NCBI GenBank assembly: GCA_964058845.1
Contig: CAXKVR010000328.1
Location: 1-64,000 of the forward strand
Length of the DNA: 64,000 bases
Origin: Carex sylvatica
Taxonomy: Eukaryota > Streptophyta > Magnoliopsida > Poales > Cyperaceae
Reading direction: 5' to 3'
Positions 16,430 to 63,887 of this stretch are shown in pieces. Below the pieces are notes generated by a model. That model was not told where the DNA came from and searched no databases. It was given only the letters and a program-made list of their open reading frames with translations. The stretch's first letter is position 1; each line of letters begins with the position of its first letter. The position numbers were made by a program, and so were the translations under genes.

Positions 16430-17692
16430 CCCCGGCACTACTAGGGGTGTTCATCAGTCACTTATCTCTTTCTCGCGACCTCGCCCCCCTCCTCCCTAGC
16501 GCGGCGTCAAGTGATCTCAGCACCCCTCTCGTCCCCTGCCCCCCTTTAGCGAGGCGAGCGCAGCGACTCAAGTGCCACCCTCTCTCTGCAACCACTTAAT
16601 CTCTCTGGGAGAAACCCTATTCGGGTAATAATTTCTGTTTTTTTTTTTTTAAATTATTTAGGTTTTAAGCCGTTGTTGGCAAGGTTGAACTGATAAAGTT
16701 TTTCCTTGTTACTTACGTGAGTGGTTAGAAAAATAAAAAATAAAAAATAAAACTGGTAAGCACTTTTCTTTTACAAGGAAAACTGATTCTGGTATCAGCA
16801 TTATATTCAGTACGTACCCAAATTGGGTCCACACATAGACACAAGTGTTTTGGATTATACTCTGGTAATTCTGGTATCAGCATTATATTGTGGTATCATG
16901 CAAATTCACTCTGTACCCATGGTATCAGCATTATATTCTGGTAAACACTTTTCACATTGAATTTGCATGCTTGCTGATTTTGTTCAATTGCAAGTTATTT
17001 TCTGAATGTACATGTATTATTGTTTTCTTTCCATTACATTATTAAATAATTTTAACACTAAGTGAGTCTTTTGAAGGTATATAAGTTACTTGTTTCAATC
17101 TTGTAAGATCCACTTCTTATGTATTGTTTCATTTATATGTTGACGATTTGTTTGTTTATTATATTATTTATTTATTGGTTACATCAATTTAATGTGGTTT
17201 TCAGGATGGGGCTCACTACATGATCTACACACTATGTGATCCTGTTCTATTTGTTGCTGTTAAGGTACCTCTTAAGCTTGCCCTCACTAAATTTGATAAT
17301 CACATTCCATAGAATCTGATGCTGAATCCTTTGAAATCTGGAATGAATCATTGCTCCAACTAAATGCCCTCTTATGGTCAATCTATTGAATTATTTATAG
17401 ACAATATAAATGAATGTGAGATAAAATAAGCCCTTTTTTCCATTTAATAATAGAACTTAATTGTTATTGAATTTTCAATTATTGCCTGGTCTAGAACCAG
17501 TATAGGCTTCTCAGAAGGACCAAATCAGATTTGAAATCTGTTCCCTTGAGACCCAAACTGATCTTGAATGAACTGAGGTGTATTAATTAATACTGTTCTC
17601 TTTTTCTTTATTTATTTGTTTAGTTGGTGGCAATACCCTAATAAAATCAAATTGAAAAACCCCTTCTGGTACGAGAGGGCGGAGTGCTACCG
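16430..17692 (+). promoter_or_regulatory. Probable 5' leader and intron of the F-box gene
   Basis: A GC-richer block (16430-16630) ends in a donor-like CGGGTAATAATTT. It is followed by a T-rich intron-like stretch that runs to just before the F-box reading frame. Within it GGTATCAGCATTATATT occurs three times (about 16792, 16872 and 16921). Transcription start and splice sites are inferred, not shown. Confidence 0.35.
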
Positions 17693-18768
17693 ATGCAAAA
17701 GCGAAAGACAACCACGGTCACCATGAGAGAACGAAGCGCCACCGCAGAGAGAAACTGGTCAGAACTTCCAGAAGAAATTCTCCATCTCTTCTCCAAAAAG
17801 CTCTCTGATATCTCTGATTTCATACGCTTTCATGCTGTGTGCAAGAGCTGGCAATTATCAGCCCCAGTCACTGATCCTCCTCCACAACTCCCCTGGCTTC
17901 TAGAGCTCTGCAGTAAAGAACAGCGTGAAAGCACCATTATACGCTTCTATTGCCTCTCATCTGGTAAGGTTCACACTATCTCCTGTCAAGGTTCCCATCT
18001 TGCCTTGCTCAAGGGCGCCCTGCATTCCGCTACTTGTTTGCCTATCACTTGAGAAGTTTCGAGAAGCATCTCATTAATCCTCTTACTCATGATCAGATCC
18101 CTGTACCTTTTGTTAATCTCTGTGCTTCACCAGACTATATTGGTCCAGATCCAATTCAAGGCGATGATATTGTTGTTATAATATCAGGAGATCCGGAAGA
18201 CCCCATGGAATGGAATGAACCACCAAAAGTGATGGCTCTTTGGCGACCTAAGGCTGAGTATTGGAACTATATAGAAGGGGTCGGTGACAGTGGCAATACA
18301 TTTTATATGGGACAATACTTTGGTAACGACCTAGAAACTAGCATTACGACTGTTCATGATATTGCCACTGAAAAATTGGTTTATCAAATCGCACCACCAG
18401 AGGGCACAGACCCTTTAGACGAGGGTTGTACAATTCTGGTTGAGTCAGGAGGAAAGATCCTAAGGTTGTTCCAGCATTATGAGGATGACCAGTGTCACTT
18501 TGATGTATACCGTCTTTATTTCGGTGATGGAAAAGGGAAACCTTGTTGGGTGAAAATCACTGATATAGGTGACCAAATGTTGTTTCTGCAATATTATCGT
18601 GGGTTATCTTTCTGTGCGAGTAACTTTGCTGGATTCAAAGGGAACTGCATTTACTTCCTGAAAGACAAGCAATATCTTTGTAGATACGACATAGGAGATG
18701 GTACAACTGAGGTGCTGCCTTGCTCTTTTGATTCATTGGAGACTTGGTTTGTGCCTAGTCTGGTATAA
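17693..18768 (+). pseudogene. F-box/DUF295-type gene broken by one frameshift
   Basis: The ATG at 17693 opens a frame whose residues 20-60 form an F-box (NWSELPEEILHLFSKKLSD, then DFIRFHAVCKSW). In plants such proteins act as substrate adaptors of SCF ubiquitin ligases. The frame ends at 18052. Continuity resumes in another frame from about 18031 (YLFAYHL, then NPLTHDQIPVPF) and runs to 18768. The C-terminal GNCIYFLKDKQYLCRYDIGDG is typical of DUF295 proteins. One missing base near 18026-18030, in a C-rich spot, accounts for the break. Total length (about 358 codons) is normal for the family and nothing else is damaged. It may be a recent pseudogene or a sequencing error. No intron is needed inside the coding part. 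Confidence 0.8.
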
Positions 18769-30563: not shown

Positions 30564-31733
30564 CTAGTTAGGTCTGATCTGCAAGTCAAAAATGAATTTG
30601 TATACATACCATATAAAGTTTGAACAGTGACTAATGAGATAGCTGGAAAGGGAAAATGGACCGATATAATTTTTTCTGTATGGAGCAGTGCGTCGGTAGA
30701 TAATCTCAGGATGATGATAATATGAATTTGTGGGTGCAAGGTTTGGGCGGTGAGAACCGTAAACATCGATGTCTGGCTCAAACCTTTCGTAATAATAAAT
30801 GGATTGCGGCAAGATTGAAGGAGAAACTGAAGTAGATAAAGATAGGCATTGGTTGTCTGACGCAAAAATAGTGCGATCAGGAGGTATGGTGGTTGGGATG
30901 AGCCTCCTATTCAACACATCAATCTCGTATACTTCAAAGTGTAAACCCAATAAGGGCAGCACATTCTGGCATTTCCGTAGGAGTAACATTTTTCCTCCAT
31001 ACTCAAGAAGACCATGATACAAGGGATAACTGAAGGTCGGGATCCGAGTTGTCAAGTTGAGTTTTGGATCCAAACTAGGCCCAATAGTTGCTTCCTCAAG
31101 CTCAAACTGCAATAATTCTCCAGTGTTGTGATCAGCTGCATACAGCTGGCCTTGAAAGGAGAGAGTGGAAGTACAACTGACCTCATAATCCGTACCAAAC
31201 CATCTGTTGCCTCTTATCCTCGCAAATGCAACTTTACGACATCTTTGAAAGAAGAAAACAACAATGGAAGATGAGAGGAAGTTCACACTACTTGGCTCAA
31301 TCATGATGGAAAGAAGGGAATCCACCTTAGGCAATTGAGTAATAGATAATGTGAATGGGTGGAGAAGACATAATTCACCCGTATTCTTTCTGAGCAGTAC
31401 AAGGAGCCCATCAGCAGAAGATATTGGCGTGTAACCCTCACGGAACTGCGGAATGTCGACAAGAAGGCAGCGTCCACTTGAGATATTAAAGAACGTACTC
31501 CAATCTTTAATCCCACGAGGGGAATACTTCTCACGTTTACCAGAGATGATCATGATCCAATTTCGTGGCCGAAAGAGGCTCTCAATGTTGGAGGGAGGAG
31601 CAGTAGATTGCCTCCAACCAGGACAAACTGCACGAAAGCGGATGTACTCTGTTACATCCTCAGAAAGTAGAAAGTTGGAGATGATCGCCACTATGAGTTC
31701 AGGGAGTGAAGACCAATTCCTTCTCTCCATCAT
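30564..31733 (-). CDS. F-box protein with DUF295-like C-terminal region
   Basis: This is the only host-type gene here that is open throughout, with 389 residues from the ATG at 31733 (a second ATG follows directly). Residues 5-45 form the F-box (NWSSLPELIVAIISNFL, then YIRFRAVCPGWRQS). This motif binds SKP1-type partners in SCF ubiquitin ligases. Residues about 90-340 fit the DUF295 beta-propeller-like family, with HPFTLSITQLP, GQLYAADHNTGELLQFEL and GLHFEVYEID. No substrate can be inferred. The last residues (after NFIW) may be intron read-through, because GTATGT/GTATAC donors occur there and a conserved exon-like block follows at 30278. Upstream, 31734-31850 is AT-rich leader or promoter. 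It is a distant paralogue of the broken gene at 17693-18768. Confidence 0.85.
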   Translation of the reverse strand: MMERRNWSSLPELIVAIISNFLLSEDVTEYIRFRAVCPGWRQSTAPPSNIESLFRPRNWIMIISGKREKYSPRGIKDWSTFFNISSGRCLLVDIPQFREGYTPISSADGLLVLLRKNTGELCLLHPFTLSITQLPKVDSLLSIMIEPSSVNFLSSSIVVFFFQRCRKVAFARIRGNRWFGTDYEVSCTSTLSFQGQLYAADHNTGELLQFELEEATIGPSLDPKLNLTTRIPTFSYPLYHGLLEYGGKMLLLRKCQNVLPLLGLHFEVYEIDVLNRRLIPTTIPPDRTIFASDNQCLSLSTSVSPSILPQSIYYYERFEPDIDVYGSHRPNLAPTNSYYHHPEIIYRRTAPYRKNYIGPFSLSSYLISHCSNFIWYVYKFIFDLQIRPN

Positions 31734-31749
31734 CGTCGTGTTGGTCTCC

Positions 31750-32439
31750 TGAATTAAAAATTTAAAATAGGGTCATTGCCAAGTTAACTTAAAAGTACAT
31801 GGAAAGAATTACAAAAAAAGCTAACATCCCTTGATCTTTAATTCCTTACCTATATGAAAATTTGAAAGTAGTATGAGCCACATATTAAAAAAAAAAAAAA
31901 AAAGGCTCCCGAAATAGCGAGGTATATCCACTGGGTACATGGTGCATGTTTATTGTCCCACCCCGAGCATTTCATGCTCCATCCAATGCATGTGTTACAC
32001 ATGAAGATTACTTTCGGGTGGGGTTTAAATTGGTGGCATGACCAGCAGAAAATTTGGCAGGTTGCTATTGATGGGTGAGACTGAACATAGGACATTTAAT
32101 GTGGGATGAGTCACAGCAGTTTACATATATAAAGCATGCTCATATAGCAGTGTTATAAGAACCGGATCGGGCCAGCGTTTAACCGGAAAAAACCAGAACC
32201 GGTCACCTATCCGGTCAGTTTTGCAATCAGATCGTTTCAGATAATGAACTGGTCAAAAAGGTTAAACCGTCTGGCTCAAAACAGATTCTTTAGATCTCCT
32301 CTGATATCATATTCCCCTTTCCTTTCTCAATCAAATCTCTTCATCCTCCGATTTCTTGACTTTTGGAAATAGATTTTTTTTTTTTAATTTCCTTCAAATC
32401 TCTTCTTTGTAGAGATGGAAACCATAGAAGATTGAAATA
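31750..32439. other. Upstream region with a one-ended MITE-like terminus
   Basis: CAGTGTTATAAGAACCGG at about 32149 followed by CCGGT-rich sequence looks like the end of a hAT-type MITE (compare CAGTGTTTTAA at 56358). No partner end was found. Otherwise no gene. Confidence 0.35.
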
Positions 32440-42130: not shown

Positions 42131-42211
42131 TTCAAAATATATCACTACCATATATTAATGCATGATACAAAATTTAATTGATATAGCGGTATACACTAGT
42201 GGAAAAACAGG

Positions 42212-42557
42212 AATCAGGATCGGCCTATCTGGATCGGCTATATGAAACAACCGATACTAATATCTATTTGGATCGATTTTCTGAACAAAATCGATTCTAA
42301 AAACTAATCAGATCGGATTTTTTAGTCAACCAATCTTAATTTGTGAACTATTGGGATCGGTTATTTCAAAAAACCAATCCTGATAGTATCAGGATCGGTT
42401 CTTAGAGAAAACCAATCCTAATAGTTGAACTATTAGAATCAGGATCGATTTTTATAAACAAATGATCCTAATTAATGAACTATTATGATCAGTTGTTTGT
42501 AAAAAATGATCTTGATACTACTGGGATCGGTTTTTTTATAAACAACCGATCCTAATA
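42212..42557. repeat. CACTA-1 5' subterminal repeats
   Basis: GATCGGTT/AACCGATC-type motifs recur in both orientations every 20-40 bases, often paired as short hairpins. In En/Spm elements such arrays are TNPA-binding sites. The role here is inferred by analogy. Confidence 0.8.
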
Positions 42558-43621
42558 GTGCATATGAAAAGTTAATTCAGTCCAATTTTTGTCAGAAACT
42601 CGTCTCTCTTCCTAGGCTTCGCCTCTCTTAATTAGCGCAGTAGCTATTTCGTCCTAAATTAATTCATCTATTTCAGCTCTATTTTCTCAGGTACATTTGA
42701 TCATCTCTTTTCTTAAGTTTGCTATTAATGGAGCACCATTTATTGGCTATGATTCGGTTCAAACCCTAAACCCTAAATCCTATATAAGAAGTGAGTTATG
42801 ATCCCCGCTCAAAATCTAAACCTTATAAGTCTTGATTCAGCTCTTTTATTGGTTCCACAAGCTTTTAAGTTTGAATACCTAGTCTCTTTTCATTTTAAGT
42901 TTTTCTTTATATGTGGAGATTTGGATGCACATGCATATATATGCTATATATGCTATATATGCTATATGTGCATATATGCTATATATGCTATATGAGCTAA
43001 TATATGAGCTATATATATGAGCTATTCTTTATATGTGGAGATTTTCTTTATAAGTTTGAATATCTCAAGATTTGCATGCACACGCTTTTGAGTTTGCTAT
43101 ATATATGCTATATATATGCCATATGAGCAGTTTTTTTTTATTTCAAGTTATAGGATATATAGCATGCATGTTATATGTACATCTCTTAATTAGGTTCCGA
43201 TCTATGATTTAATTTTGTAGATTGGCTATTATTAAGAGATTTGGTGCAGTGATCTTCATCTCACTCGATCCAGTATCCAAAAAAAAGCTGTAAGTACAAC
43301 CTAGAACTCATGTTTAATTAGTTTTGTGTATTACTGTGTTTTTTTTTTGTAAGAGTGAATAGCTAGAGTACGTAGATGTATTTATATTAGGTATGTAGCT
43401 AGAGTATTGTCTTATGAGCCACAACCGCATGATTAATGCATTTAGGTCATGATACTCATTCAAAATTAATCCATTAGGGATTAATTTTGAATAGTCTCCA
43501 TTTTGAGACTGCTCTTTGAATACTTTGTCTCATTTAGGATGTGACTATATGTTAGTCGTGTTTTAGCATTTAAGAAAATTTCGACAGTATTTTCCCTTAT
43601 TAGTTCCCCGAATACTCGTAG

Positions 43622-46424
43622 ATGGACCACAGTTGGATGTACGAAGTATCACGTCTATCTGATGAATATATGACAGGTGTCGAGGAGTTAATCAGAGTTG
43701 CTACGGAAGATATGGCGAATAAGGAGAGTGCATTGATGTCGTGTCCTTATCGTGATTGTAACAATGGTCAAAAATTCTCCAATCCGAACCAAGTGAGGAA
43801 CTATTTAATCCGTCGTGGATTCAAGCAAGGATATAAGTGTTGGTTATGACACGGTGAAAGTTTGCCAACCGACATAGGTACTGGTACTGAGCATCAGGAA
43901 TACCATACCGGTGAAAATGACGGGAATGATCTATGGGGATTGGAAACAAATATAGGCACTCGTACTGAGCATCAGGAATACCGAAGAAAATAATAATATG
44001 GTGGTAGATAGATGTGATAATTTTGATCAAATGTTATATGATTTAGAAGATAATTTTGATAATGATAAGCAGTATTGTTTATTTGAGAATTTGTACGAAG
44101 ATTATAATAAGAAATTGTATCATGGTTGTTCTAAATTTTCAAAATTGAAAAGTGTATTAAAATTGTATAACCTTAAAGCATCTAACGGTTGGAGTGATAG
44201 AAGTTTTACTGAGTTATTACAAACTTTAAAAGAAATGCTTCTGGATGGAAACGAGATACCACCTAATGTTTATGAAGCGAAGAAAATATTGTGCCCAGTG
44301 GATTTGGAAGTTCAAAGAATAAATGCGTATCCAAATGATTGTATATTATATCGAAATGAGTATAAAGATCTTCACGAGTGTCCAAAATGTGGTGCATCAC
44401 GTTACAAACCAAAGCAGTTAACCGGCGATAAAAGTGATGATCACAAACCGAATAAAGGGCCTCTAGCAAAAGTATTGTGGTACCTCCCCATGAAACTGAG
44501 ATTCAAACATTTGTTCTCAAATGCTAAATATGCGAAATTAGTGCGTTGGCATGCCGATAACCGGAAAAAAGACGAAAAATTACGGCACCCAGCTGATTCT
44601 CCTCAGTGGAGAAATATTGACAGAGAGTTCTCCGAATTTGGGCGTGACCATAGAAATCTTAAGCTTGGGCTGAATGCAGATGGAATAAATCTACACAGTA
44701 GCATGAGCAGCAAGCATAGCAGTTGGCCGGTTTTGTTGTACATTTATAATCTTTCACCTTGGTTATGTATGAAACCCAAATACATCATGTTAACCTTGCT
44801 CATATCAGGACCCAAATAGCTCGGGAACGACATAGATGTGTATCTAGCGCCATTGATCGAGGATTTAAAAGAATTATGGCAACTCAGAGTGCAGATATTT
44901 GATGCATACAGCAAATAGAAATTCACTTTACGGGGCATGATTTTCTGCACCATTAATGATTTTCCGGTTTATAGAAATTTGTCGGGTTACAGTGTCAAAG
45001 GAGAGAAAGCGTGCCATGTTTACCTGGATGATACAGTCAATGTGTGGCTACCTAATTCCTCTAAAAACGTGTACATGGGTCATCGTAGATTTCTTCTTGC
45101 CAACCATGCACACCGAAATAGAAAGAAAGAATTCAATGGAAAGACCGATAATACCAGAGTAAAATATCCGTTGACCGGTAAAGTTATTTATTCGTGAGTG
45201 AAGGATATCAAAGTTCAATTTGGGAAATTTTAAAAAAAAGTGGTGAGAAAGAAAGGGGCACCGAAAATTAGTTGGAAGAAGAAGTCAATATTCTGGGATT
45301 TACCATACTGGTAGCACTTAGATGTTCGACATTGTCTGCAGAAGAAGGTTGTTGTCACTCTTTGTCATCTTGAAATATATTTTTCACCATCTTTTTTTGA
45401 TATCATGGTTCATTTAATCGTTCACCTAATTAGATAAATTAAGATGTGTGGACCTGTTTTCTTGCGATACATGTATCCGTTTGAGAGATACATGGGATTG
45501 TTAAAGGCATATATCAAGAATCGATATCGACCTGAGGGCAGCATCGTAAGAGCTTATGCTGCTGAAGAGGTTATTGAGTTTTGTACTAATTATATGGATG
45601 ATGTCAAAGCTATCGGCATTCCTAAATCTCGGCACGAGGGTAGACTTCATGGAGTAGGCACAATCAGTGTGAAATTATTCGAGCCCGATAGTACAACGAT
45701 GTCACTAGCACATTTCCATGTTTTACAACACCTCACTGACATTCATCCTTTTTGGGACGAGCATGTGACTCTCTTGTGGTAACAGAATCCTAAGAAATCC
45801 GGCAAGTGGTTAATCGGCGAACACAATAAAAAGTTTGAAAGATGATTTAGATGTAGAGTCATGCAAGGTCCATGTCGTGAGGACCTTTTAAGAATATGAC
45901 ATCAATGGGTACATATTTTACACAAGAAATCAAGATTCAAAGAGTACTGCGCAAAACAGTAGAGTGACGTTAGTAGCCGTTTCGAGTGATTTGTTAGATC
46001 CTAAAGGTGCCGGACCATCGCATGCATCGATGTCATATTACGGGTTTGTTGAATAAATTTGGGAGTTAGATTATAGAAAATTTAACATTTTGTTATTTAT
46101 GTGTAAATGGGTCGATAACTGTAGGGGGTTAAAGTCGACGAAGATGATTTTATTCTGGTGGATTTCAGTAAGGCTGGATACAAGGATGATCCATTTATAC
46201 TTGCAAGACAAGTCATATAAGTGTTCTACATAACCGATCCGGCCGATCGTTCAAGACATTTTGTCATCTCTGGTAAAAGACATATCATTGAGATTGATAA
46301 TGTAGAACACGAATAAGCGTACGATCATTTTGATGAGATACCACCGTTTTTCACTGGCATTACATCTTTACCAACCGATGATGATAATGAAACAAGCCAC
46401 ATGCGCAATGATAATAATGAATGA
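43622..46424 (+). pseudogene. CACTA-1 TNP2-type transposase gene, broken
   Basis: Domain order is that of plant TNPD/TNP2 proteins. A Transpos_assoc zinc region occupies 43622-43849 (DHSWMYEVSRLSDEYMTG, CPYRDCNNG). The TNP2 domain spans about 44260-45180 (NDCILYRNEYKDLHECPKCG, NDIDVYLAPLIEDLKELW, MGHRRFL). A DUF4218 region lies at about 45440-45780 (MYPFERYMGLLKAYIKNRYR). A DUF4216 region lies at about 45890-46400 (INGYIFYTRNQDSK, ILVDFSKAGYKDDPFILA). Stops fall at 43847-43849, 44817-44819, near 44917, and several times in the last domain. It once encoded the catalytic DDE-type transposase. No functional product is possible without readthrough of many stops. Confidence 0.9.
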
Positions 46425-46429
46425 GAATG

Positions 46430-47880
46430 AATTGAAAAAGTTCCCACTGGCAACAATACCTAAATTTTTATTGGTATGTCAAAATATAAAAATATAAAAA
46501 TGTGAGTTATTATTGTTTAATATTGCTGACTTAAGGAATTTTTCTTTTTTCAGGATACATTGAAACACTAGACAATGAGAAACATGCAAGTTATTCTTCA
46601 ATATTTCTTGTAGCTTATTTCTTTTCATGTTATATGTAAATTTATTAGCTTATTTTTTAAATTTTAATGTTATTTTAAGTAGCTTATTTTATTTCATGTT
46701 ATAAATAATTTTCAAGTTATTAAGATAATATACTAAAATAATTTGTAAGATAATATGATAAAATAATTTCTAAAATATTGTACACATACACATTTTATTG
46801 ATAACTCATTTTTTAGAAATAATTTTTAAGATACAATAATTTATAAGATAATTTATATGTCATAATCTGTTTTAAGATCTCTTATTAAAATAATTTATTA
46901 AAATAATTTCATAAAATATTTTTAAGATGTAATTTGTAAGATAATAAGTTTTAAGATTTCTTATTAAAATTACTTCCAAAAAATTATTTATAAATTCTAA
47001 GCTACAAAAATTTGTAACAATAAAATTAAAAATAAGTATCTTGATTGGTTTGTTATGAAAAACCGATCCAGATAAGTATCTGAATCTGTTCTTTGTGAAA
47101 AAACCGATCCAGATAGTTATCTGGATCTGTCCTTCATTGAAACCCGACCCATATGGTCTATTTCTTAAAAAAATTCTTATAATTTAAAAAAAAAAATTAC
47201 ATATTAAAAATTATTTTATAAATTATTTTAATAAATTATTTTAATTAGAAATCTTAAACAAAATTACTTCCTAAAAATTATTTCATAAATTATGTTAATA
47301 AAATTATTTATAAATTATTTTAAAAAATAACCTTTTAAATATCTGATAAATTATTTGATTAAATTTATCTTATAAATTAGAATATAAAAAATTAATAAAT
47401 TATCTTGTTAAATATAAGCTACAAAAATTTGTAACATCAAATAAGTTTTTAAAAAGAAAGATATTTTTTAATTTTTATATTTTCATACCAATAAAATTAA
47501 AAATAAGTATCTGGATCTATTTTGTTATGAAAAACCGATCCAAATAGTCTATTTCTTAAAAAAATTCTTATATTTTTAAAATAAATAAATTACATATTAA
47601 AAATTATTTTAATAAGAAATTTTAACCAAAATTACTTCCTAAAAATTATTTGGTAAATTATTTTAACATTATTTATAAATTATTTTAAAAATAACCTTTT
47701 AAATATCTGATAACTTATTTGATAAAATTATATTATAAATTAAAATTATTTATTTTTTATACTATTTGGATCGGTTCAATACTAAAGAATCGATCCAGAT
47801 TGTCTTTCATTATAAAACCGTGACCTAACGTACTATGTGGATCGGTTATTATACTACAATCGATCCAAATAGTACCCCGC
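46430..47880. other. CACTA-1 middle zone between its two genes
   Basis: AT-rich sequence with GGATCGGTT-type motifs at 47080-47140, 47500-47545 and 47760-47875. It corresponds to the palindrome array of CACTA-2 (63351-63887) but is far less regular. Confidence 0.6.
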
Positions 47881-47889
47881 CTTTCCGTG

Positions 47890-48132
47890 TACTTAGCCAA
47901 AAATTGAAAGTTTTCAAATCTCACTCAAACCGTGGCCTCTCTCTTCCTCTTCTTCTCAAACCCTTAGCCTCCACCATGCCTCTCTCCTCCTCAAACCCCT
48001 AGTCCGCCGGCTCGTTGCTCCTCCCTCTCCTCCTCCGTGACCTCTTTCTCCTCCATTAAAGATTTCTCTTCCACTCCTCCCTCTCCGTCAGCTCGTTGGC
48101 TCCGCCTCCCTAGATCTCTCTCTCAAACTCGA
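47890..48132 (+). other. 5' leader exon of CACTA-1 second gene
   Basis: A CT-rich block ends in the donor CTCGA|GTAAGTCC at 48132/48133. The CACTA-2 copy has the matching CTCGG|GTAAGTCC. The following intron is enlarged by the nested LTR. Confidence 0.55.
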
Positions 48133-48399
48133 GTAAGTCCCATCTCCCTCTCCCTCTCTAAAATCAGTTTATTAGGAATTGTTTAGAAATTGTTAGCAAT
48201 TCGGATTAGAAATTATTGTTAATTCGGATTAGAAATTTGATAAGCATAAATTATATACACATTTGATCTAGATTTTATCATGAAATAACACCAATTATCT
48301 TGTATTTATAATATAAAGTGATTAAAATACACCTAGAATCAAGTTACTGCGGTTATTTGGCTTTTCAATGCAGGAAATGATGCAAAATAGCAAAAATAC

Positions 48400-48690
48400 C
48401 CCCCAGTGCGGATCAGCCACCCGCACTGCGGATCAACCCAGCCGCACTCACTGCGCAGAGGAAAAGTCCGAGCCTATTGCGGACGCACTCAGGGTCAGTG
48501 CGAATGAGCCCAGCCGCACTCAATACTTGGTCGATTTCAGAAAAGCACAGAACCCATCCGCAGTGCGGGTCATCCATCCGCAGTGTCACCCGCACCCAGA
48601 GAAATTTGCAGAAGTTAAATAAGGAAACTTGTCCCAGTGCGGGTGAATCCACCCGCAGTGCGTGTCATCCATCCGCACTGGACCCGCAGA
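48400..48690. repeat. CCGCAGTGCGG-type short repeats in the LTR U3
   Basis: CCGCACTGCGG/CCGCAGTGCGG variants recur about ten times in both orientations ahead of the TATA box. They make a GC island in AT-rich DNA and could be promoter elements. Confidence 0.7.
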
Positions 48691-48846
48691 AAGCCAATAA
48701 CTGCCCGGTTTGACAGTTTTTCTATTTTTGGCTCTTTATGGACGCATTTTTACTACCAGAAATACACATGCTTGCCGGAGAAGCAATGTAAACAGAGCAC
48801 CCACTAACCCCACATTCTAGCCTCTAAATCGGGCATAGTCCTTGGC

Positions 48847-48853
48847 TATAAAA
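48847..48853 (+). promoter_or_regulatory. TATA box of the solo LTR
   Basis: TATAAAA, followed by AGAGAGAG and a plausible start region about 30 bases downstream, in the usual place for an LTR promoter. Confidence 0.6.
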
Positions 48854-50457
48854 GAGAGAGTTCTTCCCCATTCAAGGACATCAACCAACACACGATCATT
48901 CTCTCTCTTTACACATACACTTAGCGATAAATTCTAGAGGAAAGAAAGCTTTCAAGCAAGGAGAAGAAGGATTTCCTGAGCAAGATTCGGCAAGATAGAG
49001 GTCTTTGATTTGTTAAAGGGTGTAATCATTTCTTTTATTTCATTTCTTCTTATTTTTCCAATTTTTGTAATGGATCTCTCCATGAGGGAGTAGTTCTCTC
49101 TCTAGGGGGTTAGGTCAATATTTATGAACTTGTTTAATTCTATTTTATTCGGTTATTTATTTTTATTATGATTGTTTTATGGGATTTGATTGTTAATTTC
49201 TGTGATTTATCATTTGTGTTAATTATATAGTTAGTACTTGAATTGTAGTATCCCGTTTTGGTTTCGAAAGAACCAAAATTGATCGTGATCAATAGGATAG
49301 TACCAAATTATGAATGCAAATACCCTAGGTTTAGATTAAGATTGTAACCAATTTAATCTAAGTCGGAACTATAAAAATTAAGGTTAGGGACTTGGTGAAG
49401 AACCTAACCGTGAAGTCAAACCCTAATTAGGACATCTCAAATCAAATCGGATATTGGTGTCATGAACTTAATTGAGAAGTACCAATATTTGAGGAGAGGA
49501 GAGATTAACAAGAGCTTATGGTCTAGGTAGCTAGGGTGAGGAACCTAATCGAGAAGTCCGAATTACCTAGGCACGTTACTAATTTACGAAAGTGACCCTT
49601 AATAACATATTAGGTTAGAAACCTCGTCAAATCATACATGAATTTAAACAAATACCGAATGAATAGAGTTAGCAAGGGATTGTAGACCAAAGACCCCTAG
49701 ATCTTTAAATCTTGAAAGCAAACCGATTACTTTTATTTTACTTTTATTTACTTTAATTGTTTAAAATTCCTCTTTTAGGGTATTGAACCCAACTTTAGGA
49801 TTACTTAAACAAACCCCCCTTATTCTACTTTCTTGCACTTTACTTTATTATTATTTTCTGAAATTAATTATTTATAGTTTAAAACTAAGTATTTTTCATA
49901 CTCTCTGTGGATCGATGCCTAAAATACTACTTTGATAGAATTGTGCACTTGCAATTTGACTCAAAAGTGTTTAAGGTTTAAAAGGTACATCTTAATGTAC
50001 TGAAACTTTTTAGCGTACCCTTCACACGTATCAAAATTATTGCTAATTCGATTTATTAGAAATTCAGATTAAAAATTGTTAAACCTTGTTGCTAATTAGA
50101 AATTGTTGCTTATTAAAATTATTTATTAAAATTAGTACCAAGGCTTATTAGAAATTGTTAAACCTTGTTTGTTAATCCTAGTTACTCAAGTATACTTGAT
50201 ACCAAGGTATTGTGAAAATTTTATTTAGTATTGCTCAAGTATTGGTACCAAGGCATTGCAAATTATATTGCTAATTTTATTTGATATTGCTCAAGTATTG
50301 ATAATTTTATTTGGCATTGAGTTAACCCTAGTTGGTAATTCAAAATATTGTTAACCCTAGTTGCTTAATTGAGTTATTATCAAAATATTGTTAAACCTTT
50401 TTACTCAAATATGCCTATTTAATTGTTGCCTTCATATATACTATTCTTGCTTCAGAT

Positions 50458-53400
50458 ATGGAAGGTGATAGTGAGATAGCCTCGGCTAAGAAACGAGGAA
50501 GAGGGTCTAACAAAATTAAGGATAAGTTTAACGAGAAATGCAAAAAACTGTAACTTGACAAATTTCACAGGCCAGTTGTTACTCAAGATACAACGAGTTT
50601 TGCAACGAAATTTGGGATATTGGTAAGAAGGAATGTTCGTCTAAGGTTCCAACGATGGAAAAATATTCAAGATGAGAACAAGCAAAAAATATGAGAAATA
50701 CTTAAGGTAAACAAATTTGGTACTAATTTCACAAGCTTTCATTTGATATTAACTAACTCTAAATTTTGATTTCTATTTGTTTGTAAGGTGGACTGGGGTA
50801 TAATCAACAAAGAAGAAGTGGAGAAATATTATTATCAGAAAATGGCTACTTATCACCGGAAGTGACGAACCGAAATAACTAAAGTGTGGCGCGAGGGTGG
50901 GACGCCCGATTTTGGTAAGCTCCAGATTGAAGAAAAAGACTGGGAAGAATTTTGCAAGTACCGAGAGATTGAGGAATTTGATGTATGTTTATTTCTATGG
51001 ATCACCTACCTTATCTCTAAGTAATTAAGAATTCAAATTTTTTTATAATTGAGGCCAATTGTTTCTTTGTTTAAATTGTAGGCTGCCAGCCAGATTGGGA
51101 AGGCGAATCTGGCCCACAATGAGTATCCGTATTTCTTAGGATCCAGAAGTTATAATGGTGAGAGTTTCCAGAGTAGACTCAAAGATGCTATGCATGCGAT
51201 TGCAAACGAGAAAGCATCTAGTGATCCATCTTTTCAAGGGTCAACTGCTACTGCATTGACACCAGAGGAGTTTGTTGATTTGTCGGTTGAGTATAGGCAC
51301 GTTACATGGAAACTAGTAAGACAGAAGCTCTCAGACGAGACCAAGGAACGCTTTTATCCAGAAAAATACGTACCGATCATCAATAGAATTGTGAGGATTT
51401 AGATATTGTTATTCATTGAAACCTCAACTTTAATTTATTATGTTATAACATGCAAGTTGTCATTTCAGGAAAAATAAAAAGCGACTTTTAAACAAGGCCA
51501 GTTAGCCGTCGTACGATACGACGATGTTCTGGAAAAATCTCTGCCAAATCCGGAACATCCTGGGAGGGTGAGAGGAGTGGGAGATCTGGTTCCAATGAAA
51601 ACAATATTCTGTAAGAGCTCGATAAGGAGGAGACGCACTAGTACTTACTCGAGGTCTGAAGAAGAATTTGACGCCAGAGTGGATCAAAGAGTTGAGGAGA
51701 TAGTAAGAGTAATAGAGGAGAGATTGCGGCAAGAAATGAAATATGAGATTGCAATGTTGCTTCAGCAGACAATGGGCCAACAAGAAAAGACGTATAGCCC
51801 AACAGTCGTTCAGAGCAGCTGCCAGTTAGTCAAACTATATGCAAATCTTTCTGGGTTTACTGAGGTAATGCAAATTCAGATTCTGCTCAGTAGGCCTATG
51901 CCTTAATTTCATATATATTCATATTTTATTCGAGTAAATACATATATTTGTACATGAGACAGAACTAACCTGCAAACTCCAGGTGAATATAGGTGGGAAT
52001 ACTCTTGTAGTGGCCGTAGGGACAATTCATGTTCCAGTTGTACAAGGTGGAACAATTCACAGTAGCTTATGCCACCCGACCATGCAAGAGTAACGGTGGA
52101 TGCTATTCAGGATATAGACTTCTTACCTCCCCTTACATGTACCAAATGGCGAGCAGTTAACCCTTGCATCGGTCCTCGGCAGTTTCACTGCATGGCCGAT
52201 GTCCATGATATTGACAGGTTCATATGAGGTATATTATTATTAAGTTCTTATACTTCTTAATTTGTATCTATATGATAGAGTTATAGTTGATTCTGGATTT
52301 TATTTCAATTTATTACAAAATTTTGCAGGAACAACGCAAAGTGGTACAAGTTCCTGGAGATCGAAATGCAACGAGTCACATCAAGGCGTTTGATCATATC
52401 AATTTTGACAAGCTGGAACGAACATTCAAGCAGCTGCATGATCGGTTTTCAGAGCTAGATGGCAGTCCATTCAAAATTGATCTGCCACTTGATCTTTTCT
52501 ATTTAGCAGACTCCATATTCGTTTATGCAGATGATTATGCTGCCTTGCTTACACCACGGGAGTGGCTCACTATACCAGTCATTCAGATCTGGATGTTGTG
52601 AGTTAATATTCATAATAATTGTATAATTTAATACTTTTAATTCAAATTTCACAAAATTGAGAACACCTGTATGCTAATTTTTTTTTAGGTATTGGCACAA
52701 ATTAATCAAGGAAGTATTTTCCAATGAGCAGATTGGTTTCATGGACCCCCGGCGAACGAATGTCACCATGCTGCATAATGACTGAGGAGGTACACTTCAA
52801 TACATAGGGAAAACACTCAAAGCAAATCGAGACAAGAGATTGATCTTCATACCTTACCATCAGATTTTAGTGTTATATATATATTCTAATATTATTATAT
52901 TTTTTTCAATTCATATAAATTATAGAATATTACATGCTACAAATCTAACATGCAGAAATCATTAGATATTGACTGTGCTTATGCCAAGAGAAAGTGCATT
53001 GTACGTGTATGATTCTGATAAGAAGAGTAAAAAAATGTTAATGATCTCTGCTGCGGTCGAGGAGTAAGTGCCATCCTAAATTTTACATTTATTTAGAATG
53101 CTAATGATTTTTTTATTATTTTATCATTTTAAATATCTCTCGTAAGTACTTATTGTTCAATGTGTTCATATTTCAACAGTGTCTTCGTCAGGGTAATGGG
53201 TACTTCTTTAACGATTCATAACGATTGCAAGGTAATAGCTTCTATTGAGATATGATTATAAGGACCTAGATGCAAAAAATTATGAATATCTAGACATATA
53301 GGCCATTTGTATGCTCATTAACATACATTTTAATTTTTTCAAACTTGTTATATAGTGCCCACAACAATCAGTTGGCTGAAAATGTGCATATTATGTCATG

Positions 53401-53720
53401 TTGCTCATGCAAGACATAATAAACGAACACATCGATGCTTTTCTGAACTTAAGGGTATATATGCATTTATATTTTTTTCAAAAGTAATGATGCATTGTTG
53501 CTTCAAATATAATAAAATACAAAATTAATTGTGCATGCTATTCTATCTTTTTAAAAATGCAGGATATTCCCGCTAAACATACTGTACAACGCTTGGGCGA
53601 CTTTCAAAAAATGTGGGTTCAAGTTTTCCTAAATGAGGTAAAGCCGAGAAGAAGTACAACAATTTGGGATGTAATGTGTAATCTTAATTTGCATGAACAT
53701 GAATTTTTTGTAATAATTTA
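50458..53720 (+). pseudogene. CACTA-1 second gene (transposase_24/Ulp1-like), broken
   Basis: Exon by exon this aligns with the intact gene of CACTA-2 (59116-62350). The ATG is at 50458-50460. Disabling changes include a GAA-to-TAA stop at 50551 and Trp-to-stop at 50692 and 50863. A Gln-to-stop lies at 51475, a one-base deletion near 52075 and a further two-base loss near 52115. The exon 8 donor is lost (GATTTT against GATGTT) near 52865. Trp-to-stop changes at 52963 and 53377 fall right beside the protease His and Cys. It cannot make the protein. Confidence 0.9.
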
Positions 53721-53884
53721 GAATGTGTATGTGATATTTAATTTAGGATGTGTGTGTACGATGCATAATTTAGGATGTGTGATATTTAATTTAGGATTTG
53801 TGATATTTTAGCATTCATTTTGGCCAGCAAAATATGAAAGTTGGTCATTTAATAAAAATATTTTTTTTAGATTCAATAAAACAA

Positions 53885-54360
53885 CAGGATCGGTTCTTAG
53901 CTAAGAACCGATCCAGATAGTCAATAATCTGGATCGGTTCTATTTAAAACCGATCATAATAGTTATTTTTAAAATTTTAAAAATTAAAAATTAATTAAAA
54001 ATAACTATTAGGATCAGTTTTAAATAGAACTGATTCATATTATTGACTATCTAGATCGGTTCTTAGCTAAAAAACGATCAAGATAGTCAGTAATCTGGAT
54101 CGTTCTATTTAAAACTGATCATAATAGTTGTTTTCTGAATTTAAAAAATTAAAAACTAATTAAAAGTAATATGAATCGGTTCTTTAATAGTGAACCGATC
54201 CACATAGTTACTATCTGGATCAGTTGTTTAAACAGCCGATCTTGATAGTTTATATTTGAATCGGTTATTTAACCGATCCAGATTATTGTAGTATCTGTAT
54301 CACCTTCATCAGGATCGGTTGTATTCCGATACTAATATGCGTATGTAACCGATCCTGATT
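53885..54360. repeat. CACTA-1 3' subterminal repeats
   Basis: A dense array of GATCGGTTCT/AGAACCGATC-type motifs in both orientations directly inside the 3' terminus, the counterpart of 42212-42557. Confidence 0.85.
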
Positions 54361-54610
54361 CCATATTTTTCACTAGTGATAGCCCGCACATGTTCCATTG
54401 TATTGATATAGCTTGATAAAGTAAAAAAAAGCCAATATGGATATTAAGGCCCATTAAAATTGCAAAATCATGTTTTCAAAAAAAAAAATTACAAAATCAT
54501 AACCCCATGTAACATAGCGGCCGTAGCTTGATTAACGCAGTTTTACCCCGTAGCTTACCTTTCTAGGTCCAAAACCGCTATAACTAGCTATTTAGAAGCT
54601 TGATAACACT

Positions 54611-58204: not shown

Positions 58205-58549
58205 TTCTTTCTTTTTTTGTCATTCAAAGCCCGTAGGCACCTTGCATTACAACAGATATCACCCATAACTACCTAGAAAACATATTAGAACTGAACAAGG
58301 TAGTGATTAAATCTAGAAATTAAAACTGGGAAACGTATGACCGACATAATCCCCTTCATTTACCCTTCCTTCTTTTACCAAATTGTCAGCCAAATCATTA
58401 TGGCTTCTCTGAATATGGACACACGAGAAAGATTTATATTCCTGTAACAAATACCAGACTTCAAGGATCTCTTCAAAAGCATTACATTCTGCATTAATCG
58501 GTGGTTGAGAGCTTGAGTAGATGTTAACCAATTCCAAATAGTCAGAATC
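58205..58549 (-). pseudogene. LINE RNase H-like tail, cut by CACTA-2
   Basis: Minus strand from 58549: DYLELVNIYSSSQPPINAEC, then LQEYKSFSCVHIQRSHNDLA and DNLVKEGR. This fits the RVT_3 RNase H-like domain at the end of many plant LINEs (an Asp, then an ECNA-like motif, then RSHNDLAD). An A-rich tail follows (58219 down to 58205 on the minus strand). Its upstream part is severed exactly where CACTA-2 begins. Confidence 0.75.
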
Positions 58550-58572
58550 ACTAGTGGAAAATAATGAATCAT

Positions 58573-58920
58573 GATCGGTTATAAACGCATATTAGTATCG
58601 AAATACACTCGATCCTGATGAAGGCGATACAGATACTACAATAATCTGGATCGGACTATCTGGATCGGTTCCATAATAGTGAACCGATCCAGATAGTTAT
58701 TTTCTGAATTTAAAAATTAAAAAAAATTCAGAAAATACTATCTGGATCGGTTCACTATTATAGAACCGATCCAGATAGTCTGTTATCTGGATCGGTTTCT
58801 ATAGGAACCGATCCTAATAGGGTTTAGGGTTTATTTTTAATTATATTTTAATTTTTTAAATTTAGATTATTTACTATCTGGATCGGTTCTTAGCTTAGGA
58901 ACCGATCCAGATAGTTAAAT
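58573..58920. repeat. CACTA-2 3' subterminal repeats
   Basis: GGATCGGTT/AACCGATCC motifs are arranged as nested inverted pairs, for example around 58670-58790, where a longer hairpin encloses AATTTTTT-rich sequence. Presumed transposase-binding zone. Confidence 0.85.
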
Positions 58921-59115: not shown

Positions 59116-62100
59116 CTACAATGTTGTAGTTATTTTCGGCCTAATCTCATCTAAAAAAATTTTAACCCACATTTTCCGCAAATCTCCCAAGCGTTGTACA
59201 TTATGTTTAGCGGGAATATCCTGCATTTTTAAAAAGTTAGAAGAGCATGGACAATTAATTTTGTATTTTATTATATTTGAAGCAAGAATTTATCATTACT
59301 TTTGAAAAATATATAAATGCATATATACCCTTAAGTTCGGAAAAGAATCGAGTTGTTCGCTTATTATGTCTTGCATGAGCAACATGACATAATATGCACA
59401 TTCCCAGCCGGCTGGTTGTTGTGGGCACTATATAACAAGTTTGTAAAAAATAAAATGTAAGTTAATGAGCATATATAGCAATGATTTAGATATTCACAAA
59501 TTTTTGCATCTAGGTCCTTATAATCATATCTCAATAGAAACTATTACCTTGCAATCGTTATGAATCGTTAAAGTACCCATTTCCCTGATGAAGGCACTGT
59601 TGAAATATGAACAAATTGAACAATCAGTACTTACGAGAGATATTTAAAACGATAATATAATAATAAAATCATTAGAATTCTAAACAAACGTAAAATTAAG
59701 AAAGTTACTTACTCCTCGACCGCAGCAGTGATCATTAGCATTTTTTTGCTCTTCTTATCGGAATCGTACACGTACAAGGAACGATCTCTTGGTATAAGCA
59801 CGGTCAATATCCAATGATTTCTGCATATTAGGTTTGTAGCATGTCATATTCTATAATTTATATGAATTGAAAGAAATATAATAAAATTATAATATATATA
59901 TAACACTAACATCTGATGGTAAGGTATAAAGATCAATCTCTTGTCCCGATTCTCTTGGAGTGCTTTCCTCATGTATTGAATAACACCTCCCCGGTCATCA
60001 TTCAGCATGGTGGCATTTGTTCGCTGGGGGTCCATGAAACCAATCTACTCATCGGGAAATTCCTCCTTGATGAATTTGTGCCAATACCTAAAAAAAAGAA
60101 GGCATACATGTGTTCTCAAGTTTGTGAAATTTGAATTAAAAGTACTGAATTCTGCAGTTATTACGAATATTAAACTCACAGCATCCATATCTGAATGACT
60201 GGTCCAGTGAGCCACTCCCGTGGTGTAAGCAAGGCCGCATAATCATCTGCATAAACGTATATGGACTCTGCTGAACAGAAAAGATCAAGTGGCGGATCGA
60301 TTTTGAATGGACTGCCATCTAGCTCTGAAAATCGATCACGCAGCTGGTTGAATGTTCGTCCCAGCTTTTCAAAATTTATATGATCAAACACCTTGCTGTG
60401 ACTCGTTGTTTTTCGATCTCCAGAAACTTGCACCTCTTTGCGTGGTTCCTGCAAAATTTCATAATAAATTGAAATAAAATACAAAATCAACTATAACTAT
60501 ATCATATAGATACAAATTAAGAAGGCATAAAACTTAATAATAATATACCTCATCTGAACCTGTCAATATCATGGACATCGGCCATGCAGTGAAACTGCCG
60601 AGGACCGATGCAAGGGTTAACTGCTCGCCATTTGGTACAGGTATGGGGAGTTCTATGAAGTCTGCATCACGAATAGCATCCACCGTTACTCTTGCATGGT
60701 CGGGCGGCATAGGGAAACCGTGAATTGTTCCACCTTGTACAACTGGAACATGAATTGTCCCTACGGCCACTACAAGAGTATTCCCACCTACATTCGCCTG
60801 GAGTCTGCACCTTAGTTCTTCCTCCTGTACAAATACATGTATTTACTCGAATAAAATCTAAATATGTATGAAATTAAAGCATAGACCTACTGATTCAAAT
60901 CTGAATTTGCATTACCTCAGTATGCTCGGAAAGATTTGCATATGGTTTGACTGACTGACAGCTGCTCTGAACGACTGTTGGGCTATACGTCTTTTCTTGT
61001 TGGCCCATGGTCTGCCGAAGCATTATTGCAAGCTCAGCTTTCATTTCTTCTTTCATTTCTTCTTTCATTTCTTGCCGCAATCTCTGCTCCATTCCTCTTA
61101 CTCTCTCCTCCACTCTTTGATCCACTCTCGCATCAAATTCTTCTTCGAATCTCGAGTAAGTAACAGTGTGTTTCCTCCTTATCGAGCTCTTACCAAATGC
61201 TGTTGTAATTGGAAGCAGACCGCCCACTGCTCTCACCCTCCCGGGATATTCCCAATTTGGCAGAAATTTTCCCAGAACATCATTGTATCGAACGACGGCC
61301 AACTGGCCTTGTTTAAAGGCCGCTTCTTGTTCTTCCTGAAATGACCACATAAATGTTATAACAAAATAAATTAAAGTTAAAGTTTCAATGAATGACAATA
61401 TCTAAATACTCACAATTCTGGTGATAACCGGTAAGTATGTGTCTGGATAAAAGCGTTCATTGGTCTCTTCTGAGAGCTTTTGTCTTCCTAGTTTCCACGT
61501 GACGTGCCTATGCTCAACCGACAAATCAATAAGCTCCTCTGGTGTCAATGCAGTACCAGTTGACCCTTGGGAAGACGGATCACTAATAGCTTTCTCGTTT
61601 GCAATCGTCTGCATAGCATCTCTGAGTCTACTCTGAAAACCCTCACCGGTATAACCTCTGGATCCTAAGAAATGCGGATACTTGTTGTGGGCCTGATTCG
61701 CCGTTCCAATCTTACTGGAATCCTACAATTTGAACAAAGAAACAATTAGTCTCAATTATAAAAAAATTTGAATTCTTAATTAATTATACATAAGGTAGGT
61801 GGTTCATAGTAACTATCATACAGCAAATTTCTCCGTCTCTCGGTACTTGCAAAATTCTTCCCAGTCTTGTTCTTCAATCTGGAGCTTACCAAAATCGGGC
61901 GTCTCACCCTTGCGCCACACTTTAGTCATTTCGGTTCGCCACTTCCGGTGACAAGTAGACATTTTCTGATAATAATATTTCTGCACCTCTTCGTTGTCGA
62001 TTATGCCCCAGTCCACCTTACAAACAAATAGAAATAAAAAATTTAGAGTTAGTTAATATCAAAAGAAATCTTGTGAAATTAGCAGCAAAATTTGTTTACC

Positions 62101-62350
62101 TTAAGTATTTCCCATATTTTTTGCTTTTTCTCATCTGGAACATCTTTCCATCGTTGGAACCTTAGAGAAACATTCCTTCTTATCAATATCCCAAATTCCG
62201 TTGCAAAACTCGTCGTATCTCGAGTAACAACCGGCCTGTAAAATTTGTCAAGTTCCAGCTGTTTGTCTTTCTCGTTGAACTTCTCCTTAATTTTGTTAGG
62301 CCCTCTTCTTTTCTTCTTAGCTGAGACTATGTCACCATCACCTTCCATAT
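59116..62350 (-). CDS. Intact CACTA-2 second gene: transposase_24-like protein with Ulp1-like protease domain
   Basis: Proposed coding exons (minus): 62348-62100, 62016-61822, 61722-61414, 61335-60916, 60824-60549, 60448-60180, 60087-59911, 59820-59713, 59596-59548, 59427-59329 and 59220-59116. All introns have GT-AG ends, and the exons sum to 2256 bases, or 751 codons plus stop. The start MEGDGDIVSAKK is basic. Exon 2-4 products resemble plant transposase_24 proteins. Exon 5 ends in a charged coiled coil. Exon 6 has VVAVGTIHVPVVQGGTIHG, a segment common in such proteins. Exons 8-11 form a C48-type region: NHWILTVLIP (His), YVYDSD (Asp) and QQPAGWECAYYV (Gln and Cys). A SUMO-type isopeptidase activity is inferred from the motifs only. 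Splice sites are my reading, supported by alignment with CACTA-1. Confidence 0.8.
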
Positions 62351-63340: not shown

Positions 63341-63350
63341 CCTAATAGAG

Positions 63351-63887
63351 TATCAAGATCGGTTCAAACATGAGAACCGATCCTGATTCCTATCTGGATC
63401 GGTTCTTTAGTAAAGAACCGATCCAGATAGGCATCAGGATCGGTTCTCATGTTTGAACCGATCTTGATACGTTTTTAAATTTAAAAATAAAACGGTGCCT
63501 TTAATAGAGTATCAAGATCGGTTCAAACATGAGAACCGATCCTGATGCCTATCTGGATCGGTTCCTTACTAAAGAACCGATCCAGATAGGAATCAGGATC
63601 GGTTCTCATGTTTGAACCGATCCTGATACTATTTTGGGGGCACTGTTTTATTTTTAAATTTAAAAAAGTATTAAAAAAGTATCAAGATCGGTTTAAACAT
63701 GAGAACCGATCCTGATTCCTATCTGGATCGGTTCTTTAGTAAGGAACCGATCCAGATAGGCATCAGGATCGGTTCTCATGTTTGAACCGATCTTGATACT
63801 TTTTTAATACTTTTTTAAATTTAAAAATAAAACAGTGCCCCCAAAATAGTATCAAGATCGGTTCTCAGGTTTGAACCGATCTTGATA
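63351..63887. repeat. Array of near-perfect palindromes in CACTA-2
   Basis: Three 119-bp palindromes lie at 63351-63469, 63510-63628 and 63680-63798, plus a 38-bp one at 63850-63887. In the first, the 59-base arms differ at a single position around the centre G63410. Each arm strings together TATCAAGATCGGTT, GAGAACCGATCCTGAT and CTATCTGGATCGGTTC. The third is extended outward by further inverted sequence (GTGCCCCC/GGGGGCAC flanks) to about 230 bp. The array lies between the two gene territories of the element, just upstream of the second gene. Confidence 0.95.

What the first reader, a model, noticed from the sequence alone, without database searches (positions are those of the whole stretch)
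59116..62350. Intact CACTA accessory gene fusing a transposase_24-like region to a Ulp1-like cysteine protease
Seen: eleven coding exons with GT-AG introns sum exactly to 751 codons. The 3' exons carry NHW, YDSD and QQPAGWEC in the order and spacing of the C48 His-Asp-Gln-Cys set. Known: ULP-like domains have been captured by plant DNA transposons, notably Mutator-like ones. Inference: the element may remove SUMO (or a similar tag) from its own transposase or host silencing proteins. All catalytic positions are retained here, while the sister copy is broken right beside them, so this copy stands out.
Basis: partly seen in the sequence, partly recalled or inferred. Interest (0 to 1): 0.8.

Follow-up and report, generated by a model that had tools for sequence, protein, structure and literature searches.

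The report
Decayed CACTA transposon with SUMO-protease-like gene
This is one copy of a young, many-copy plant jumping-gene family whose second gene joins a possible DNA-binding region to a SUMO-protease-like domain; this copy is broken by a stop signal before the protease core, while other copies in the same genome are still open, and the kind has been described before.

Summary
The eleven-exon model is real: exons at window 62348-59116 (minus strand) sum to 751 codons plus a stop, all introns GT-AG. The copy is not intact. Codon 587 (60047-60045, exon 7) is an in-frame TAG upstream of the His, Asp, Gln and Cys exons, so the predicted product ends after 586 residues without the protease core. 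All 34 other copies with letters there have a sense codon. The element spans 58549-69971 of the contig (11,423 bp), with CACTA ends and AAT/AAT target duplication; its transposase frame has two stops. Exon 1 has 40 scored matches in 64 Mb; 9 of 39 fetched copies are open across all exons, so this copy does not stand out. C48 is above Pfam's cut-off; Transposase_24 is below it. In 5 of 36 pairs of open copies tested, substitutions are hard to tell from neutral drift. ULP domains in CACTA elements, and Transposase_24 followed by C48 in ORF2, are published (PMC2528002, PMC8978399). Most likely role: a TnpA-type protein acting on GATCGGTT palindromes, with a deSUMOylating tail; inferred, not shown.

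The parts
58549..58578 (.). terminal inverted repeat at the element end downstream of the accessory gene (CACTAGTGGAAAATAATGAATCATGATCGG); 3-bp flank AAT
   Evidence: partner end at contig 69971 (outside the window, L055:2071), also flanked by AAT
58573..58907 (.). subterminal GATCGGTT array, 9 sites, 8 of them in 4 convergent pairs
62100..62348 (-). exon 1 of accessory gene (start codon at 62348)
61822..62016 (-). exon 2
61414..61722 (-). exon 3; the Transposase_24-like stretch (protein residues 132-172, below cut-off) spans the end of exon 2 and the start of this exon
60916..61335 (-). exon 4; holds a probable long helical linker
   Evidence: one long helix, pLDDT about 67-78 per block, in the aligned part of a Carex relative; the rest of that model is unreliable
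60549..60824 (-). exon 5
60180..60448 (-). exon 6; the C48 match begins at residue 561, in the last part of this exon
59911..60087 (-). exon 7, inside the C48 match
60045..60047 (-). in-frame TAG stop, codon 587
59713..59820 (-). exon 8, His634 and Asp651
59548..59596 (-). exon 9
59329..59427 (-). exon 10, Gln688 and Cys694
59116..59220 (-). exon 11 with terminal stop
63343..63881 (.). internal array of 20 GATCGGTT sites (159-170 bp tandem unit) between transposase gene and accessory gene
42194..54378 (+). sister CACTA element (12,185 bp), ATA/ATA duplication, broken transposase pieces at 43956-44819 and 45438-45782, accessory pseudogene at 50458 to about 53670

Best explanation
It is a recently inserted but decayed copy of a CACTA (En/Spm-type) DNA transposon of a plant, probably a sedge. 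The family carries two genes in tandem: a Transposase_21 transposase (TnpD type) and, in the TnpA position, an eleven-exon gene whose N-terminal half is weakly Transposase_24-like and whose last 190 or so residues form a Ulp1/SENP-like cysteine protease domain. In this copy the second gene ends at codon 587 and the transposase frame carries two stops, so the element is probably non-autonomous. In open copies I think it most likely (about 45%) that the protein acts like TnpA: it binds the paired GATCGGTT palindromes at both ends and between the two genes, helps synapsis and controls element promoters, while the protease tail strips SUMO or a similar modifier from transposase or chromatin proteins bound there. 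Shown: gene structure, domain, element borders, site arrays, stops. Inferred: DNA binding, protease activity, substrate and benefit.
For: Gene model and TAG at codon 587; C48 over cut-off and motif alignment with Ulp1/SENP8; TIRs and AAT/AAT; two in-frame stops in the transposase frame; an open 1123-aa Transpos_assoc, Transposase_21, DUF4218, DUF4216 frame in the C31 copy, beside an open accessory gene; 40 scored matches of 61 candidates in the genome; nearest relative 0.0053 substitutions per site away; 37 GATCGGTT sites in the element against a mean of 0.3 in 200 single-base shuffles, 17 convergent pairs 16-19 nt apart; the only two proteins found are from Carex rostrata.
Against: No direct evidence of DNA binding or proteolysis. 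Transposase_24 is below cut-off. dN/dS among open copies (0.61) is close to that of copies with two or more stops (0.68), and the nonsynonymous fraction of the whole gene is within the neutral range at realistic transition bias. The C31 copy lacks a recognisable start-side TIR in the piece fetched, so no single complete autonomous element was seen.
Confidence: 0.8

Rival explanations
1. The C48 tail is a passenger: a captured host protease fragment carried along without function, and only the N-terminal half (TnpA-like) matters for the element.
For: Substitution pattern in the ULP part does not differ clearly from neutral; 23 of 35 near-full copies have a stop before the catalytic His.
Against: Nine fetched copies keep all eleven exons open. 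Exons 8 and 10, which hold His/Asp and Gln/Cys, have the lowest diversity of the eleven exons among open copies (0.013 and 0.012, against 0.022-0.026 in introns 8-10), but only 207 nt are involved, introns 5-7 are nearly as low (0.015-0.018), and among broken copies introns 7 and 10 are less diverse than exon 10. ULP domains recur in CACTA families of several plants (PMC2528002, PMC8978399).
Confidence: 0.35
2. The truncated 586-residue product of this copy is itself functional, for instance as a repressor that binds element ends without the protease.
For: All exons up to codon 586 are open with good splice sites, leaving the N-terminal half and linker.
Against: A stop in exon 7 of 11 is a classic target for nonsense-mediated decay (general knowledge); the stop is private to this copy among 35 rows with letters there, and such transitions are the commonest route to stops in the family (57 of 75 are C-to-T or G-to-A), which fits ordinary decay.
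Confidence: 0.07
3. The gene is intact, because splicing removes the stop.
For: None found; no RNA data were available.
Against: The codon is sense in 34 of 34 other copies with letters there, so other copies read exon 7 through this point without any need of splicing, and the C48 profile match spans that stretch.
Confidence: 0.03

Closest known systems
Jozin CACTA elements of Chenopodium, domain architecture Type 4 (PMC8978399, passages seen)
   Same: Transposase-associated domain, Transposase_21 and DUF4216 in ORF1, then Transposase_24 followed by Peptidase_C48 in ORF2
   Different: Reported by the authors only from Caryophyllales (Vitis and Citrus each with one domain missing); here the host is probably a sedge (monocot) and the Transposase_24 match is sub-threshold
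CACTA-ULP families Cactavine-2, -3, -4, -5, -13 of grapevine and rice proteins with Tnp2 and ULP1 (PMC2528002, section 10 read)
   Same: CACTA elements carrying a ULP1 domain
   Different: No sequence comparison with them was made here
TnpA of En/Spm-type elements, as summarised in PMC8195511 (passages seen)
   Same: Partner gene of tnpD, multi-exon, said there to bind subterminal repeats and to diverge fast between species
   Different: That paper's main text has no word beginning 'protease' or 'ulp'; binding is untested here
KIU / VANC genes of Mutator-like VANDAL elements (review PMC13317346, passages seen)
   Same: Transposon accessory gene with a Ulp1 domain, said there to help escape from silencing
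   Different: Another superfamily; no VANC relationship was tested here
Yeast Ulp1 (1euv) and human SENP8 (2bkq)
   Same: Related by sequence over the catalytic motifs
   Different: Very weak overall similarity (E about 0.0015)

Membership tests
CACTA (En/Spm) transposon | terminal inverted repeats beginning CACTA | tested here: met
   CACTAGTG at 58549 and inverted at contig 69971
CACTA (En/Spm) transposon | 3-bp target site duplication | tested here: met
   AAT on both sides; sister element ATA on both sides
CACTA (En/Spm) transposon | Transposase_21 (tnp2) transposase gene | tested here: met
   L016:7205-9376 minus, 166 bits against 28.6; frame interrupted by two stops in this element
CACTA (En/Spm) transposon | subterminal repeated motifs | tested here: met
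   GATCGGTT arrays at both ends
Peptidase C48 (Ulp1) | profile match over the curated cut-off | tested here: met
   30.7 bits against 20.7, with X at the stop; 30.5 in open copy L046
Peptidase C48 (Ulp1) | His, Asp, Gln, Cys in order and Ulp1 spacing | tested here: met
   17 and 6 residues; motifs aligned to 1euv; that Ulp1 has the same spacing is partly recalled; in this copy they lie beyond the stop
Peptidase C48 (Ulp1) | C48 fold | not tested
   the spliced product is not a contiguous translation and was not submitted for folding; the Carex relative folded lacks this domain
Peptidase C48 (Ulp1) | isopeptidase activity on a ubiquitin-like modifier | not testable with these tools
   needs an assay
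Transposase_24 / TnpA | PF03004 match over cut-off | tested here: not met
   16.4 bits (this copy), 23.0 (L046), 19.7 (P0001); cut-off 28.7
Transposase_24 / TnpA | second gene downstream of the transposase, same strand | tested here: met
   transposase frame at contig 65201-68575 minus, accessory gene 62348-59116 minus
Transposase_24 / TnpA | binding to subterminal repeats | not testable with these tools
   needs a gel-shift or similar test
VANC-type anti-silencing protein | sequence similarity to VANC proteins and loss of methylation at target motifs | not tested
   no comparison made

The most novel reading that the evidence does not exclude
The accessory protein of open copies is a sequence-specific anti-silencing factor: it reads the paired GATCGGTT palindromes, which lie at both ends and also in a long array between the two genes, and its protease tail removes SUMO-dependent silencing there. 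That would be a CACTA counterpart, arisen independently, of the Ulp1-carrying VANC (KIU) genes of Mutator-like elements.
Probability: 0.1. Interest if true: 0.65.

Novelty: new member of a known kind. Interest (0 to 1): 0.2.

Why it matters
The corrected reading removes a false 'intact gene' and places it in a young multi-copy family. That family offers several open copies and a clear candidate binding motif, so the open question of what ULP domains do in plant transposons could be tested in a small system. The single copy itself is ordinary.

Tried and rejected
Rejected: intactness of the window copy. Rejected: that the window holds the whole element; it runs to contig 69971. Dropped after checking: that the palindromes are densest between the genes; the C31 copy has as many at its 3' end, and I lowered the novel case from 0.12 to 0.10 for it.

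dN/dS gave no clear signal. Pairwise ratios among 9 open copies were 0.61 overall and 0.57 in the ULP part; among 16 copies with two or more stops 0.68 and 0.60. Six of 41 rows (L031, L037, L047, L051, L052, L056), each with under 90% of the coding length, were left out of these counts and of the tree. A first neutral simulation used an intron transition/transversion ratio of 0.92 and gave 0.88-0.89, which looked like constraint; fourfold sites gave 262 transitions to 66 transversions, and with stronger bias (ratio 3) the whole-gene nonsynonymous fraction of the 5 pairs tested (of 36 pairs of open copies) fell at P 0.185-0.68. The lowest single value was 0.025 (L046-L029, ULP part, ratio 1), of 60 tests.

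Protein search with the whole L026 protein found 2 proteins; only the 7995 candidates sharing most words were scored. With residues 500-751 it found nothing at E 0.01 among 383 candidates. The fold of the Carex relative P0001 was uninformative (mean pLDDT 41.3, pTM 0.21) and was not used for a fold search. A paper search for CACTA, transposon and 'Peptidase C48' found none, although PMC8978399 writes the name with an underscore; a Cyperaceae/CACTA/Ulp1 search listed 8 of 234 papers, none about this subject by title, and none was opened. In PMC5735166 (VANC evolution) the terms ulp, KIU and C48 do not occur, so the KIU statement rests on the review alone.

Full report
Observation. I rebuilt the gene on the minus strand. 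Eleven exons, 62348-62100, 62016-61822, 61722-61414, 61335-60916, 60824-60549, 60448-60180, 60087-59911, 59820-59713, 59596-59548, 59427-59329 and 59220-59116, sum to 2256 nt, 751 codons and a stop, with all ten introns GT-AG. The same calculation shows TAG at codon 587, at 60047-60045 in exon 7. The catalytic positions, His634, Asp651, Gln688 and Cys694, lie in exons 8 and 10, after the stop. The gene is therefore interrupted; a normal transcript would give 586 residues without the protease core and would be expected to be a target of nonsense-mediated decay (general knowledge).

Domains. Read with X at the stop, the protein matches Peptidase_C48 (PF02902) at E 3.7e-7, 30.7 bits, cut-off 20.7, residues 561-713. 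Transposase_24 (PF03004) matches residues 132-172 at 16.4 bits, below its cut-off of 28.7. An open copy, L046, gives 30.5 bits for C48 and 23.0 for Transposase_24. Searched over the genome exon by exon, neither profile picked a copy of this family: the 7 PF02902 and 6 PF03004 matches lie elsewhere. Against solved structures the C48 part of L026 finds yeast Ulp1 (1euv, E 0.0015) and SENP8 (2bkq, E 0.0016), with the His-Trp and the Gln-x5-Cys motifs aligned. The His-Asp and Gln-Cys distances are 17 and 6.

The element. The left border is CACTAGTGGAAAA at 58549, preceded by AAT; the right border is the inverted CACTAGTAGAAAA ending at contig position 69971, followed by AAT. The length is 11,423 bp, and the right part lies beyond the window. 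Upstream of the accessory gene, on the same strand, lies a Transposase_21 gene (166 bits in the piece L016:7205-9376) whose frame has two in-frame stops in this copy. The sister element in the window, 42194-54378, has ATA on both sides; its accessory gene has 8 in-frame stops, frameshifting deletions and two bad splice sites.

The family. Exon 1 has 40 scored matches, the window's own included, among 61 candidates in the 64-Mb assembly, a lower bound. I compared the window copy, the sister and the 39 others; three of these (L018, L023, L056) are cut by the end of their contig and could not count as open. Nine of the 39 (L020, L021, L025, L026, L027, L029, L041, L046, L049) have start, stop, all splice sites and an open frame. 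At codon 587, 35 of 41 rows have letters; the window copy alone has a stop and the other 34 have a sense codon. The window copy's nearest relative is 0.0053 substitutions per site away (L021). A recognisable terminal repeat at the 3' side was found in 27 of 38 loci examined, with 19 different 3-base flanks. So this is a young family with several open copies, and the window copy is one of the slightly decayed ones. In the C31 copy the transposase is an open frame of 1123 residues with Transpos_assoc, Transposase_21, DUF4218 and DUF4216 next to an open accessory gene, but no start-side terminal repeat was recognised in the piece fetched. Transposase integrity was looked at in no other copy.

Decay. 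The 35 near-full copies (window copy and sister included) hold 75 in-frame stops, shared ones counted in each copy; 57 of 75 are C-to-T or G-to-A changes against the commonest codon of the open copies, although such changes make up 76 of the 325 possible single-base routes to a stop in L026. That is the pattern expected of methylated, silenced copies (inference). 23 of the 35 have a stop before the catalytic His.

Selection. Within the family I could not show constraint. Pairwise dN/dS was 0.61 among open copies and 0.68 among copies with two or more stops, and with realistic transition bias the whole-gene nonsynonymous fraction is within the neutral range in the 5 pairs tested. A weak hint the other way: exons 8 and 10 are the least diverse exons among open copies (0.013 and 0.012; introns 8, 9 and 10 have 0.026, 0.022 and 0.024), but they total only 207 nt, introns 5-7 are nearly as low (0.015-0.018), and in broken copies introns 7 and 10 are less diverse than exon 10. 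Across species, the transposase is 395/418 identical to a Carex rostrata protein over the main aligned stretch, while the N-terminal part of the accessory protein is 181/251 identical to the same gene model, so the accessory gene seems to evolve faster, as PMC8195511 also says of tnpA (passages seen). The two Carex proteins end before the C48 part, so the protease cannot be compared.

Candidate binding sites. GATCGGTT occurs 37 times in the element against a mean of 0.295 (largest 3) in 200 single-base shuffles; 17 convergent pairs are 16-19 nt apart. Nine sites lie at 58573-58900, six at 69788-69926, two at 64823-64842, and 20 at 63357-63874 between the two genes, in a 159-170 bp tandem unit. 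The C31 copy has 18 sites in the same intergenic place, 9 others in L057, and 19 at its 3' end in L026. The palindromes therefore lie at both ends and upstream of the accessory gene, presumably in its promoter region.

What it most likely is and does. It is a CACTA element of a probable sedge (the only two database proteins found are from Carex rostrata), whose TnpA-position gene carries a ULP domain. I think open copies make a TnpA-like protein that acts at these palindromes and whose tail removes SUMO or a related modifier locally. Binding, activity and substrate are inferred. The window copy can at most supply the N-terminal half.

Compared with the literature. ULP domains in five grapevine CACTA families and in rice Tnp2 proteins were reported in 2008 (PMC2528002, section 10 read). 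A 2022 study of Chenopodium describes ORF2 with Transposase_24 followed by Peptidase_C48 (PMC8978399, passages seen). A 2026 review treats the Ulp1-carrying VANC genes of Mutator-like elements and states that the precise function of the domain is unknown (PMC13317346, passages seen). The finding is a new member of this known kind, in a probable sedge.

Noticed in passing
window 63343-63881 and L057:6773-7208: Palindromic GATCGGTT tandem array between the transposase and the accessory gene, in addition to the subterminal arrays.
   Followed up: partly
G000 C179:93142-93294 and C125:9871-10023 (not fetched): Transposase_24 matches over the cut-off, each in a 655-aa open frame; perhaps another element family with a proper Transposase_24 gene.
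   Followed up: no
L001-L007: Seven Peptidase_C48 matches over cut-off elsewhere in the genome, host genes or other transposons.
   Followed up: no
L039 and L040: Two contigs with the same identity, stop, splice defect and 3-base flank; probably one locus assembled twice (haplotigs) or a duplication.
   Followed up: no
window 30564-31772 (minus) and 17645-18768 (plus): Open frames that by eye look like F-box genes; no profile search was run.
   Followed up: no
accessory gene codons 79, 110, 224 and 692 across copies: Stops recur at the same codons in 3 to 5 of 35 near-full copies, either mutation hot spots or broken copies that spread in trans.
   Followed up: no
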